Position numbers and translations under genes: made by a program. Positions 19,327 to 25,017 of a stretch of DNA of 64,000 nucleotides are shown one piece after another. The number at the start of each line of letters is the position of its first letter. Position 1 is the stretch's first letter. Location of the stretch: assembly GCA_015061545.1 (NCBI GenBank), contig SUWJ01000010.1:1-64000 (forward strand), written 5' to 3'. The notes under the pieces were generated by a model, which was given only the letters and a program-made list of their open reading frames with translations, made no database searches and was not told the origin of the DNA. This DNA comes from Lentisphaerota bacterium (GTDB taxonomy: Bacteria > Verrucomicrobiota > Lentisphaeria > Victivallales > Victivallaceae).

Positions 19327-20372
19327 AAAGTCTGTTGAAATATCTTTCGCCTTTTGCTCCGGATATGGCAGGGGCGGTTTCGGTTTTATTCGAGCTGGAA
19401 GGTCTGATCGCCATCTGCGATGCAGGCGGCTGCACGGGGAATATTTGCGGGTTTGATGAACCGCGCTGGTTTACCCGCAAAAGCGCCCTGTTCAGCGCCG
19501 GTTTGCGCGATATGGATGCAATCATGGGCCGCGACCGTCAGCTGGCAGATAAATTGATTGCGGCAGCCAACAACGGTAAATTCAACTTTATGGCAATGAT
19601 CGGTTCGCCGGTCCCCGCCGTTATCGGTACGGATTTTGCGGCGCTGAAACGTATGTGCAGTCAAAGGCTGGATATGGATATTCTGGCGGTGGAGTGCAGC
19701 GGTACACTCTATTACGAAAGCGGGGCATCCGCTGCATATTGCGAACTTTTCCGTCAGGCGGCAAAAGAAAAACTGCCGGTCAAAGCCGATACCATCGGCG
19801 TGCTGGGAGCTACTGTACTTGACTGCAGCAGTATCAACGTCGGCAAACTTATTGCCGATAAACTTGAAGGTGATGTGCAAATTTACGGTATGAGCAGCGA
19901 TTTTCAGGCAATCAGACGCGCTTCGGAAGTGGCAAAAAATATTGTGATCGCTCCGTCGGGGATGAAGTGTGCCAAATATCTGGAGCGCAAGTTCGGTACC
20001 CCCTGGGAGATCGCCGATCTTTCGCTGCCCGAAACCACCGTACAGGCTGCGCTGGCGGCAGGCGGCAGAAAGTGTTTGATCGTGCATCAGGCGTTTGCCG
20101 CAGCCGGGTTGAAAAAACAACTGCTGGCTTCCGACGATAAAATGGATATATTCTGCGGGAGCTTTTTCAATAAATGCAGCAATATAAGCGATTTTAAATT
20201 TGAAAGCGAAAGCGATTTTTACGATTGCATCGAGCAGGGCAACTTTGATCTGGTGATCGCCGATTCAGCTTTGCAGCGGGTAGTGCAGAAAATATATCGG
20301 GGCAAATGGGTCGATTTTATGCATTTTGCCGTTTCCGGCCGTTTGCAGGAGGAGTTGTATCAAGCAGTATGA
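19323..20372 (+). CDS. Nitrogenase component 1-like beta (NifK-like) subunit 2
   Basis: APDMAGAVSVLFELEGLIAICDAGGCTGNICGFDEPRW, paralogous to the N-terminus of the 16112 gene; ATGA overlap with the preceding gene. Confidence 0.78.
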   Translation: MKSLLKYLSPFAPDMAGAVSVLFELEGLIAICDAGGCTGNICGFDEPRWFTRKSALFSAGLRDMDAIMGRDRQLADKLIAAANNGKFNFMAMIGSPVPAVIGTDFAALKRMCSQRLDMDILAVECSGTLYYESGASAAYCELFRQAAKEKLPVKADTIGVLGATVLDCSSINVGKLIADKLEGDVQIYGMSSDFQAIRRASEVAKNIVIAPSGMKCAKYLERKFGTPWEIADLSLPETTVQAALAAGGRKCLIVHQAFAAAGLKKQLLASDDKMDIFCGSFFNKCSNISDFKFESESDFYDCIEQGNFDLVIADSALQRVVQKIYRGKWVDFMHFAVSGRLQEELYQAV

Positions 20373-22687
20373 CCGGCAGGATTTACAATATTTACGGTGT
20401 GGTGCAAGGAGTGGGATTCCGCCCCTTTGTCCACCGTATTGCCAGCAAGTATAATATCTGCGGCAAGGTGATAAATAAAGGTTCTTATGTGGAGGTAATT
20501 GCTCAGGGCACTCCTCAGCAGCTGGCAGGATTCCGCCGCGCGCTGCAGGTCGATGCCCCCGAACGGTCGGCAATCGAACGGATCGAAGAGCTGCCGTATG
20601 AGGGAGAGGATTTTCAGAACTTTTCCATCGAAGAGAGTCAGCACGATCGGGGCGTGATCTACATTCCGCCTGATATTGCCACCTGCCGCGAGTGCCGCAG
20701 CGAGCTTTATGATCCTGCCGACCGCCGTTATCTGCACAGTTTTATCAACTGCACCGCTTGCGGACCGCGTTTGACGATTCTGGAGTCATTGCCTTACGAC
20801 CGCGAACGGACCAGTATGAAGAAATTTCCCATGTGCAGCGAATGCAGCAGCGAATACAATAATATTACCAGCCGCCGTTACGATGCCCAGCCCGTTTGCT
20901 GCAACGATTGCGGTCCGCAGGTATATATACTCAACAGTTCCTACCGCAACGGCAGCGCCATAACCCGGGTGCGGGAGCTGATAATGCAGGGCAGAATTGT
21001 GGCAATCAAAGGTATCGGCGGTTTTCATCTGGCGTGTGACGGCAGAAATCCTGAGGCAATAAGCCGTTTGCGCGAACTTAAACACCGCCCGGTCAAGCCT
21101 TTTGCGGTAATGATGCGCGATCTGGCAGCCGTCCGGAAGGAGTGCAGACTTTCCCATACTGCCGAAGCGTGGCTCGACGGCTGCGAAAAACCGATTCTGC
21201 TGCTGGATAAACTGCCTGACTCAACTTTGCCTGAGGTGCTGGCACCGTACAATCCCACGCTGGGAGTAATGCTGCCTTACGCACCGCTGCAAATGCTGCT
21301 GTTTGACTATCCTGACGGAGTGGATATGACTGATGTGCTGGTGATGACCAGCGGCAATGTGTCAGGCGCACCGATCTGCCGCAGCGAAGCGGATGCCGCA
21401 GGCGAGATCGGCGGTTTTTGCGACTGCATACTTTCCCACGATCGGGATATACGGCTGCGTGCCGACGACTCGGTGATGATGCTTTTTGAAGATAATATAA
21501 GTATGATACGCCGTTCCCGCGGTTTTGCTCCGCTGCCGCTGGAGCTGGCGTTGGAAAGCAGCCTGGAACGCAGCGTGCTGGCGATGGGCGGCGAACTTAA
21601 AAATGCTTTCTGCCTGAGCCGCGGCAATATGGCATATTTAGCTCCCCATATCGGCGATATGGAGGATTTGCGCAGTCAGGAAGCGTTGGCGGAATCGATA
21701 AAACTTTTCAGCAGTATGCTCGAAAGTTCGCCTGAACTGGTGGTGTGCGATCTGCACAGCGCTTATCATACAACGGCCATGGCAGAAAAAATGAATCTGG
21801 TACTGGTGAAGATCCAACACCATTACGCTCACATTCTCAGCTGCATGGCAGAAAATAAGTGCGGTGAGATGGTTATCGGTGTGGCAATGGATGGTACAGG
21901 CTACGGAACCGACAACACCATCTGGGGCGGCGAAATTTTGCTGGCGGATCTGAACGGATTTTCCCGTGCCGGGCATATTGCCGCTTTTCCGCTGGCGGGT
22001 GGTGATACCGCTGCCCGCGAAGGCTGGCGCGCAGCACTCGGTATGCTGCTGCGCTACAGCCCGGAATCGGCTGCGGAATATGCCGAAAAGCTGGCGATTT
22101 GCAGCTCAACTGAGTTCAAGATCATTTCAAGTATGGTCAAAAACAGGATAAATACCTTTGAAACCACCAGCACCGGGCGGTTGTTCGACGGGGTCAGCGC
22201 GTTGCTGAAGATCGCGGGCAGTTCCACTTTTGAAGGCGATGCGGCGATGCGTCTGCAGTTTGCCGCCGAAGCGTGGCTGCTGCAGAATAATACTGCGGAG
22301 GTGGATGAAACTGTGGATAAATTGACATTTGCTGCTGATTGCGAAGATGTTCTGCCGACGGATAAACTCTTTATGTATCTGGCGGATGCGTTTGTAAACG
22401 GAGCTGACGCCGGGTATTGCGCATATATTTTCCACCGTCAGCTGGCGGAATTGATCTGCCGGAAGTGTCTGGCTTTGCGGGAAAAAGAAAATATAAATAT
22501 CTGTGCGCTTTCCGGCGGCAGTTTTCAAAACCGTTTGCTGCTGCAGCTTTGTGTGAAGCTGCTCCGCCGGCACGGTTTTACGGTGCTGACTCATAAAACG
22601 GTTCCCGCCAACGATGGCGGTATATCGCTGGGACAGGCGCTTTACGGAGTAAATTGGTTGAACAGAGGTAATTGCAAGAGTTCTTGA
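20369..22687 (+). CDS. hypF: Hydrogenase maturation carbamoyltransferase HypF
   Basis: Acylphosphatase domain GVVQGVGFRPFVHRIA; zinc-finger cysteines CRECRSELYDP...CTACGPR...CSECSSEY...CCNDCGP; IQHHYAHILSCMAEN...AMDGTGYGTDNTIWGGE. Confidence 0.96.
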   Translation: MTGRIYNIYGVVQGVGFRPFVHRIASKYNICGKVINKGSYVEVIAQGTPQQLAGFRRALQVDAPERSAIERIEELPYEGEDFQNFSIEESQHDRGVIYIPPDIATCRECRSELYDPADRRYLHSFINCTACGPRLTILESLPYDRERTSMKKFPMCSECSSEYNNITSRRYDAQPVCCNDCGPQVYILNSSYRNGSAITRVRELIMQGRIVAIKGIGGFHLACDGRNPEAISRLRELKHRPVKPFAVMMRDLAAVRKECRLSHTAEAWLDGCEKPILLLDKLPDSTLPEVLAPYNPTLGVMLPYAPLQMLLFDYPDGVDMTDVLVMTSGNVSGAPICRSEADAAGEIGGFCDCILSHDRDIRLRADDSVMMLFEDNISMIRRSRGFAPLPLELALESSLERSVLAMGGELKNAFCLSRGNMAYLAPHIGDMEDLRSQEALAESIKLFSSMLESSPELVVCDLHSAYHTTAMAEKMNLVLVKIQHHYAHILSCMAENKCGEMVIGVAMDGTGYGTDNTIWGGEILLADLNGFSRAGHIAAFPLAGGDTAAREGWRAALGMLLRYSPESAAEYAEKLAICSSTEFKIISSMVKNRINTFETTSTGRLFDGVSALLKIAGSSTFEGDAAMRLQFAAEAWLLQNNTAEVDETVDKLTFAADCEDVLPTDKLFMYLADAFVNGADAGYCAYIFHRQLAELICRKCLALREKENINICALSGGSFQNRLLLQLCVKLLRRHGFTVLTHKTVPANDGGISLGQALYGVNWLNRGNCKSS

Positions 22688-22778
22688 AAACCGGAAATGG
22701 CTCAGGTTTTACCCGGTCGGATCGGGAAAAACTTTTTTGATTACCTCAATAATTCAAGATAAACAGGGAGTATGAACT

Positions 22779-23995: not shown

Positions 23996-24015
23996 TAAGA
24001 GTATAAAAGGTTATT

Positions 24016-25017
24016 ATGGAAGAATTTATTACATTATCTCACGGCGCAGGCGGCAGACAGACTGCGGATTTGATTGGCAATATTTTCAAAAAATACTTTG
24101 CCAATAAGGATTTTACGCCCGACGATGCGGCGGTGCTGAATCTGGATAGCCGCAAAATCGCATTTTCCACCGATGGCTTTATTGTGTCGCCATGGAAGTT
24201 TCCCGGCGGCAACATCGGTAAATTGAGTATTTGCGGTACGGTCAACGATCTGGCTTGCATGGGGGCGCGTCCCCAATATCTGACTTGTGCAATGGTTATC
24301 GAGGAAGGTTTTCCGATTGCCGATCTGCTTTGCATTGTCGAAGCTATGGCAAAAACCGCTGCTGAAGCAGGGGTGAATATTGTTGCCGGCGATACCAAAG
24401 TAGCGGGTAAAGGTCAGGTGGACGGTATTTTTATTACTACTACCGGTGTGGGCAGAGTTTTGGATAACGCCAATACCTCCGGCGCTTTTGCTCAGGTGGG
24501 CGATGCGGTGATCGTTACCGGTGATGTGGGGCGCCACGGCTGCACGATCCTGTTGGAACGCAATGAGTTCGGTATTGAGGCAGATGTGACCAGCGATTGT
24601 GCCCCGCTGAATAAAACAGTGGAGGCACTTTTCGCCGAAACCGGCAATATCCACGTTATCCGGGATGCCACCCGCGGCGGAGTCGGCACCGTGCTTTACG
24701 AAATTTGCGAACAAAGTCAGGTGGGGATCAAGCTCAATGGGGAGGCGATCCCTGTTGCCGATGCCGTGCGCGGAGTGTGCGGTATGCTGGGTATGGAACC
24801 GTTGTATCTGGCGTGCGAAGGCCGTCTGGTGATCTTTGCCCCGCAAAGCGAAGTGCAGCCGATTTTGCAAGTGCTGCACAGTATGCCCTATTCGCAGGGC
24901 GCCGCTGTTATCGGCGAAGTAACCGATAATGTGGGCAAAGTGGTTGTGGAACACAGCTTCGGCGGTAAAACGATTCTGCCGCAGCCGACGGGTGAACTGC
25001 TGCCGCGCATCTGCTGA
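24016..25017 (+). CDS. hypE: Hydrogenase maturation protein HypE
   Basis: LSHGAGGRQTADLI, GTVNDLACMGARP, DATRGGVGTVLYEI, and the C-terminal PRIC bearing the thiocarbamate/thiocyanate Cys. Confidence 0.97.
   Translation: MEEFITLSHGAGGRQTADLIGNIFKKYFANKDFTPDDAAVLNLDSRKIAFSTDGFIVSPWKFPGGNIGKLSICGTVNDLACMGARPQYLTCAMVIEEGFPIADLLCIVEAMAKTAAEAGVNIVAGDTKVAGKGQVDGIFITTTGVGRVLDNANTSGAFAQVGDAVIVTGDVGRHGCTILLERNEFGIEADVTSDCAPLNKTVEALFAETGNIHVIRDATRGGVGTVLYEICEQSQVGIKLNGEAIPVADAVRGVCGMLGMEPLYLACEGRLVIFAPQSEVQPILQVLHSMPYSQGAAVIGEVTDNVGKVVVEHSFGGKTILPQPTGELLPRIC

What the first reader, a model, noticed from the sequence alone, without database searches (positions are those of the whole stretch)
20369..25017. 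HypF-C-D-E without HypA/HypB or hydrogenase subunits, and hypF translationally coupled to a nitrogenase-like gene
Seen: the hypF start codon overlaps the K2 stop (ATGA at 20369-20372). HypE keeps the C-terminal PRIC, HypC the N-terminal MC, HypD its Cys-rich C-terminus, and HypF its acylphosphatase, zinc-finger and Kae1-like parts, so the set looks active. No HypA or HypB (Ni insertion), protease or large/small subunit occurs in 64 kb. Established: HypCDEF suffice for Fe(CN)2CO synthesis, while HypAB add nickel. Inference: the Fe(CN)2CO unit may be delivered to a Ni-free target, plausibly the nitrogenase-like proteins next door.
Basis: partly seen in the sequence, partly recalled or inferred. 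Interest (0 to 1): 0.82.

Follow-up and report, generated by a model that had tools for sequence, protein, structure and literature searches.

The report
HydG-less hydrogenase cofactor assembly operon
A gut bacterium, like many relatives in other phyla, carries a single operon that seems to build the iron active site of [FeFe]-hydrogenases without the usual enzyme HydG, using the cyanide-making Hyp proteins of nickel hydrogenases and two nitrogenase-like enzymes instead.

Summary
In detail: hypF-C-D-E are intact, and hypF overlaps the preceding nitrogenase-like gene K2 by ATGA (20369-20372). The operon starts earlier than reported: TM1266-type regulator, HydE, NifH-like 1, D1, K1, NifH-like 2, D2, K2, then HypF-C-D-E (12560-25017). 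The same order recurs in Lentisphaerota, Bacillota and a spirochaete, often with HydF added; nothing else around it is conserved. In 295 genomes of the phylum, all 14 carriers have an [FeFe]-hydrogenase, none has HydG and none has a PF00374 [NiFe]-hydrogenase, whereas 138 of 155 other [FeFe]-positive genomes have HydG (p = 2.6e-12, not corrected for kinship). None of 47 further carriers has HydG. In HydG-positive relatives the TM1266 gene lies directly upstream of hydG or hydE-hydG, so the module stands in hydG's place. Relatives with an Ech-type [NiFe]-hydrogenase keep a separate hyp set for it. Best reading: HypCDEF plus two nitrogenase-like ATP-driven modules replace HydG as the source of the Fe-CO-CN unit for HydE/HydF. 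The chemistry is inferred. No published account was found in the open-access library searched.

The parts
12560..12811 (+). TM1266-family [FeFe]-hydrogenase system regulator (ORF open from GTG 12509)
   Evidence: TIGR03959 105.9 bits (cut-off 60.8), PF21699; in HydG+ relatives its homologue lies directly upstream of hydG or of hydE-hydG
12979..14022 (+). HydE, radical SAM [FeFe]-hydrogenase maturase
   Evidence: TIGR03956 480 bits (cut-off 254.6), full length; aligns to T. maritima HydE 5fep E=3e-70; CX3CX2C 14/14
14026..14772 (+). NifH-like ATP-dependent reductase 1 (H1)
   Evidence: PF00142 285 bits; below the cut-offs of nifH, CfbC, BchL and BchX models; cysteines C94 and C130 32/32
14781..16115 (+). 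D1, nitrogenase component 1-like subunit with a conserved C-terminal GCESC tail
   Evidence: PF00148; three cysteines 32/32 and C-terminal C441 31/32, C444 30/32 (numbering one higher than from ATG 14781); fold match NifEN/NifDK
16112..17287 (+). K1, nitrogenase component 1-like subunit (ATGA overlap with D1; apparently fused to D1 in two Bacillota loci)
   Evidence: PF00148 92 bits; profile matches NifD/NifE chains; fusion inferred from 840-850 aa D1 frames in L172 and L181
17275..18036 (+). NifH-like ATP-dependent reductase 2 (H2)
   Evidence: PF00142 292 bits; cysteines C96 and C132 34/34
18043..19326 (+). D2, nitrogenase component 1-like subunit, the most conserved D/K protein of the operon (57-87% identity across phyla)
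   Evidence: PF00148 101 bits; alignments A1 and A4; nearest solved chain NifE E=4e-14; fold NifDK/NifEN
19323..20372 (+). K2, nitrogenase component 1-like subunit (ATGA overlap with D2)
   Evidence: PF00148 64.8 bits; nearest solved chain NifE E=1e-10
20369..22687 (+). HypF carbamoyltransferase (ATGA overlap with K2 stop)
   Evidence: TIGR00143 744 bits
22779..22967 (+). HypC chaperone, N-terminal MC
   Evidence: C2 33/33 and H45 33/33
22964..23995 (+). HypD Fe(CN)2CO assembly scaffold
   Evidence: TIGR00075 395 bits; 2z1d E=1e-78; clade apart from the HypD of the other hyp loci, support 100/99
24016..25017 (+). HypE, C-terminal PRIC arm
   Evidence: 2z1t E=1e-83; C333 32/32

Best explanation
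The operon is a HydG-independent route to the [2Fe] part of the [FeFe]-hydrogenase H-cluster. HypF and HypE make cyanide from carbamoyl phosphate, and HypC-HypD assemble an Fe(CN)2CO-type unit (known chemistry of these families). The unit is then handed to two ATP-driven nitrogenase-like modules (H2/D2K2 next to HypF-C-D-E, H1/D1K1 next to HydE), which reduce it and adjust its CO/CN complement. This part is inferred; one module could also make the extra CO or remove surplus CN, since two Fe(CN)2CO would bring four CN and the H-cluster keeps two. The product enters HydE and HydF as HydG's product normally would, and HydF loads HydA. That the module replaces HydG is supported by comparative genomics; the order and chemistry inside the nitrogenase-like steps are inference.
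For: Operon content and order conserved in 13 phylum relatives and in 80 loci from Lentisphaerota, Bacillota, Spirochaetaceae and Synergistaceae, with HydE in 35, HydF in 28, TM1266 in 52 and HydG in 0. No other conserved neighbours that look functionally linked. [FeFe]-hydrogenase in 14/14 carriers of the phylum sample, HydF over cut-off in 13/14, HydG in 0/14. Of 155 other [FeFe]+ genomes 138 have HydG: Fisher p=2.6e-12, not corrected for relatedness; genera g4 and g24 hold both states. HydG over cut-off in 0/47 genomes reached through other loci; the sub-threshold matches are 373-435 aa frames, and the same search also rings in E. coli. In HydG+ relatives TM1266, or TM1266-hydE, is directly upstream of hydG. 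G170 has HydA-HydF-H1-D1-K1-H2-D2-K2-HypF in one locus. The window genome's HydA has the H-cluster motifs TSCCP, MPCQAK and EIMACPGGC. The module's HypD is a clade of its own across phyla. No carrier has PF00374; seven carriers have no HypB over cut-off and no Ech-type large subunit. D1, D2 and K2 have NifE, the nitrogenase cofactor scaffold, as nearest solved chain.
Against: No biochemical evidence exists for any step. The window genome is only 82% complete, so the argument rests on the relatives. G173 lacks a HydF over cut-off. 17 [FeFe]+ genomes of the phylum have neither HydG nor this module, so lack of HydG is not always explained by it. Fe(CN)2CO does not match the H-cluster's ligand count without remodelling. 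[FeFe]-hydrogenase presence in the 47 further genomes was not searched for. The p-value ignores phylogeny.
Confidence: 0.82

Rival explanations
1. The Hyp and nitrogenase-like proteins make a separate, new Fe-CN-CO cofactor for the nitrogenase-like enzymes themselves, and HydE/HydF are merely shared or co-regulated.
For: K2-HypF adjacency in 73/80 loci; the swap of blocks in six loci keeps H2-D2-K2-HypF-C-D-E together.
Against: TM1266, HydE and HydF are proteins of [FeFe]-hydrogenase systems and are the other conserved genes; HydG is missing in every carrier examined and present in most non-carriers with [FeFe]-hydrogenase.
Confidence: 0.1
2. HypCDEF here serve a [NiFe]-hydrogenase (for example an Ech-type one) encoded elsewhere or lost from the assembly; the neighbourhood with nitrogenase-like genes is incidental.
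For: Six carrier genomes have a second locus with HypB and a divergent HypD; in five of them an Ech-type large-subunit match was found too.
Against: Those loci carry their own HypC-D-E and HypB and their HypD is a separate group. Seven carriers, five of them 92-94% complete, lack HypB over cut-off and any Ech-type large subunit. The gene order holds across phyla.
Confidence: 0.04
3. A narrower form of the best explanation: the nitrogenase-like modules only supply electrons or CO (for example CO2 to CO at a NifH-type protein), and the Fe unit reaches HydE/HydF directly from HypC-HypD.
For: H1 and H2 keep the P-loop and the two conserved cysteines of the NifH family. That NifH proteins can reduce CO2 to CO is my own recollection of the literature, not looked up here.
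Against: Two complete H/D/K sets with conserved D and K cysteines, apparent D1-K1 fusions and NifE as nearest kin suggest binding or reworking of a metal precursor rather than simple CO supply.
Confidence: 0.3

Closest known systems
HydE-HydF-HydG maturation of [FeFe]-hydrogenase
   Same: HydE, HydF, TM1266 regulator and an [FeFe]-hydrogenase with H-cluster motifs are all present
   Different: HydG, the tyrosine lyase that supplies Fe, CO and CN, is absent; its place after TM1266/HydE is taken by ten other genes
HypA-F maturation of [NiFe]-hydrogenase (Fe(CN)2CO branch)
   Same: HypC, D, E and F with their catalytic cysteines
   Different: no HypB and no [NiFe]-hydrogenase partner found; own HypD clade; coupled to nitrogenase-like genes
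NifEN, scaffold of nitrogenase cofactor assembly (with NifH)
   Same: fold and nearest sequence relatives of D1, D2 and K2; paired D/K subunits with a NifH-like ATPase
   Different: about 14-19% identity over the fold matches; two sets in one operon; D2 keeps counterparts of two NifE cysteines while a third position has none
Other nitrogenase-like enzymes: BchLNB/BchXYZ, CfbCD, methylthio-alkane reductase MarHDK
   Same: NifH-like ATPase with D/K subunits
   Different: H1 and H2 score below the cut-offs of the BchL, BchX, CfbC and nifH models; operon partners are hydrogenase maturases

Membership tests
[FeFe]-hydrogenase HydEFG maturation system | HydE present | tested here: met
   TIGR03956 480 bits in the operon
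[FeFe]-hydrogenase HydEFG maturation system | HydF present in the genome | tested here: met
   515 bits at G000:C5
[FeFe]-hydrogenase HydEFG maturation system | HydG present in the genome | tested here: not met
   best match 50.4 bits against a cut-off of 312, lying on HydE itself; genome 82% complete, but 0/14 phylum carriers and 0/47 further carriers have it
[FeFe]-hydrogenase HydEFG maturation system | [FeFe]-hydrogenase with H-cluster motifs | tested here: met
   two PF02906 proteins; TSCCP, MPCQAK, EIMACPGGC in the one read
[NiFe]-hydrogenase Hyp maturation | HypC, D, E, F with catalytic residues | tested here: met
[NiFe]-hydrogenase Hyp maturation | HypB for nickel insertion | tested here: not met
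   no HypB match in the own genome
[NiFe]-hydrogenase Hyp maturation | HypA for nickel insertion | tested here: inconclusive
   only a motif scan of the window; no profile search of the genome
[NiFe]-hydrogenase Hyp maturation | [NiFe]-hydrogenase large subunit in the genome | tested here: not met
   PF00374 none over cut-off; PF00346 protein lacks CxxC motifs; genome 82% complete
N2-fixing nitrogenase | NifH, NifD, NifK reaching curated cut-offs | tested here: not met
   NifH-like 307 and 310 bits against 394; no D/K protein near any cut-off
NifEN cofactor scaffold | NifE equivalog score and its cluster cysteines | tested here: not met
   best 69 bits against 505; D2 aligns C70 and C130 with two NifE cysteines, with none at the GCAF position
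NifEN cofactor scaffold | binds a metal cluster precursor and passes it on | not testable with these tools
   needs purified protein

The most novel reading that the evidence does not exclude
A second pathway to the H-cluster exists in many gut and rumen anaerobes: cyanide comes from carbamoyl phosphate through HypF/E instead of from tyrosine, and nitrogenase-like enzymes have become maturases that process an organometallic Fe-CO-CN unit. Part of the 'pseudo-nifH' genes of anaerobic Clostridia would then be hydrogenase maturases.
Probability: 0.75. Interest if true: 0.95.

Novelty: categorically new. Interest (0 to 1): 0.92.

Why it matters
H-cluster assembly is held to need HydG as the source of CO and CN. 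A survey of Clostridium acetogens (PMC9431212) could not explain genomes with HydE and HydF but no recognised HydG, and with HypC-D-E-F but without HypA/B; this module would explain such cases (whether those strains carry it was not tested here). It gives a testable function to a family of nitrogenase-like proteins now annotated as nitrogenase or NifE. It may also account for some of the pseudo-nifH genes reported in Clostridia and animal guts (PMC8597730) and for rumen 'nitrogenase' genes without matching N2 fixation (PMC6776011). It offers an alternative gene set for producing [FeFe]-hydrogenases.

Tried and rejected
Service to a [NiFe]-hydrogenase: rejected on genome-wide searches and the separate HypD clade. 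N2 fixation: rejected on scores. Further conserved partner genes next to the operon: recurring flanking families were few, in at most 11 of 81 loci, and look like ordinary neighbours such as ABC transporter ATPases. The own-genome PF00346 protein as an Ech large subunit: rejected, no CxxC. A plasmid-borne relative in Treponema saccharophilum (28% identity) turned out to be a different nitrogenase-like locus next to an iron ABC transporter. Literature searches for a HydG-independent route, or for nitrogenase-like proteins in hydrogenase maturation, found no such report in the open-access library; preprints and most subscription journals were out of reach. Profile mapping of D1 onto a single NifE sequence failed.
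Full report
OBSERVATION. The four genes are as described. HypF lies at 20369-22687, HypC 22779-22967, HypD 22964-23995 and HypE 24016-25017, all on the + strand; HypF and HypD match their curated families over nearly the full length, and HypD and HypE align with solved structures. The hypF ATG at 20369 overlaps the stop of the upstream nitrogenase-like gene. The same four-base ATGA overlap joins D1/K1, D2/K2 and HypC/HypD.

The operon starts about 8 kb earlier. It begins with a TM1266-type regulator (TIGR03959, 105.9 bits) and a full-length HydE (TIGR03956, 480 bits), then NifH-like 1, D1, K1, NifH-like 2, D2, K2, and then HypF-C-D-E. 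TM1266 and HydE belong to [FeFe]-hydrogenase systems, not to [NiFe] ones. HydE aligns with the Thermotoga maritima HydE structures at E=3e-70.

THE GENOME. The window lies in a 2.35 Mb assembly that is 82% complete. It has two [FeFe]-hydrogenase large-subunit proteins; the one read has the H-cluster motifs. It has HydF. It has no HydG over cut-off, no PF00374 large subunit over cut-off and no HypB. Its one PF00346 relative lacks the nickel-binding CxxC pairs.

CO-OCCURRENCE. In 295 genomes of the phylum, D2 is strongly matched in 14; three more genomes have only a weak match. All 14 have an [FeFe]-hydrogenase, all 14 have HypD, none has HydG over cut-off, none has a PF00374 large subunit, and 13 have HydF over cut-off. 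Of the 155 other [FeFe]-positive genomes, 138 have HydG. The table 0/14 against 138/155 gives p=2.6e-12. This is not corrected for kinship, but two genera (g4 and g24) contain both HydG-positive and module-positive species, so the exchange probably happened more than once. 17 [FeFe]-positive genomes have neither.

BEYOND THE PHYLUM. A scan of 85,488 species genomes with the D2 profile found 170 relatives, 80 kept, from Lentisphaerota, many Bacillota (including Ruminococcus bicirculans, Clostridium muellerianum and Clostridiaceae BL-3), a spirochaete and a Synergistaceae contig. The gene order is nearly constant: (TM1266)-(HydF)-(HydE)-H1-D1-K1-H2-D2-K2-HypF-HypC-HypD-HypE. H2-D2 are adjacent in 79 of 80 loci and K2-HypF in 73; HydG is in none. 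Many loci are cut by contig ends, so counts of TM1266, HydE and HydF are lower bounds. In six loci the two blocks are swapped (H2-D2-K2-HypF-C-D-E first), which keeps the second nitrogenase-like module with the Hyp genes and the first with TM1266 and HydE. Two loci have D1 and K1 apparently in one frame. No other flanking gene family is widely shared. HydG was sought in 47 of these genomes and none has a match over cut-off.

REPLACEMENT OF hydG. In HydG-positive relatives the TM1266 homologue, where found, stands directly upstream of hydG, or of hydE-hydG. In module carriers it stands upstream of H1, of HydE-H1 or of HydF-HydE-H1. One carrier (G170) has HydA and HydF directly upstream of H1 in the same direction.

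NOT FOR NICKEL. Six carriers have a second locus with HypB and a divergent HypD; in five of these an Ech-type large-subunit match was found. Three such large subunits were read (one from a carrier, two from non-carriers) and have both CxxC pairs. These loci have their own HypC-D-E. The module's HypD forms one group across phyla, split from the others with 100/99 support. Seven carriers have no HypB over cut-off and no Ech-type large subunit. G255 among them has one PF00346 match, of the ~500-aa type whose two examples read lack CxxC.

PROTEINS. The catalytic cysteines of HypC, HypD, HypE, HypF, HydE and HydF and the cluster cysteines of both NifH-like proteins are conserved throughout. The D and K proteins are distant members of the nitrogenase superfamily. 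For D1, D2 and K2 the nearest solved sequence is NifE, the cofactor-assembly scaffold; for K1 it is NifD, closely followed by NifE. Predicted structures of D2 and D1 (mean pLDDT 85 and 84) match NifEN, NifDK, methylthio-alkane reductase and, for D1, protochlorophyllide reductase. D2 aligns with NifE with cysteines 70 and 130 at two of the NifE cysteine positions. D1 ends in a conserved GCESC motif on a low-confidence tail, a plausible metal-handling arm (inference).

MECHANISM. Known for the families: HypF/HypE turn carbamoyl phosphate into cyanide on the HypE C-terminal cysteine; HypC/HypD build Fe(CN)2CO; HydG would normally give HydE an Fe(CO)2(CN) unit; HydF loads the hydrogenase. Inferred here: HypCDEF make the cyanide-bearing iron unit, the two ATP-driven nitrogenase-like modules reduce it and correct its ligands, and HydE/HydF finish the job. 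Which module does what, and where the CO comes from, is open.

LITERATURE. A survey of Clostridium acetogens reports HydE and HydF in all strains, recognised HydG in only some, HypC-D-E-F in all and HypA/B in only some, and leaves this unexplained (PMC9431212). Pseudo-nifH genes not linked to nitrogen fixation are reported as common in Clostridia and animal guts (PMC8597730). No paper found describes this module. Preprints and most subscription journals were not searchable, so prior description there cannot be ruled out.

Noticed in passing
L172:6718-9243 and L181:6680-9235: D1 occurs in single frames of about 840-850 residues that also take the place of K1, which suggests a fusion of the two subunits.
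   Followed up: partly
window 16080-16112 (end of D1): D1 homologues end in a conserved GCESC(L) motif on a low-confidence tail of the model.
   Followed up: partly
L203:13223-16396 (Treponema saccharophilum plasmid pTS1): A different nitrogenase-like H/D/K set beside an iron ABC transporter, function unknown.
   Followed up: no
phylum genomes G010, G015, G040, G049, G060, G101, G121, G156, G160, G182, G252, G256, G262, G265, G278, G283, G290: [FeFe]-hydrogenase proteins without recognised HydG and without this module; G101 is a single-contig genome listed as 100% complete.
   Followed up: no
G000:C2:161225-161953 (L105), G267:C31 (L104): Complex I 49-kDa/group 4 hydrogenase-like protein without the nickel-binding CxxC motifs.
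   Followed up: partly
G176:C65 (L083), G261:C132 (L092), G179:C12 (L086), G229:C86 (L087), G049:C18 (L084), G143:C57 (L085): Ech-type [NiFe]-hydrogenase loci with their own HypC-D-E-B; their HypD lies outside the module's HypD group.
   Followed up: partly
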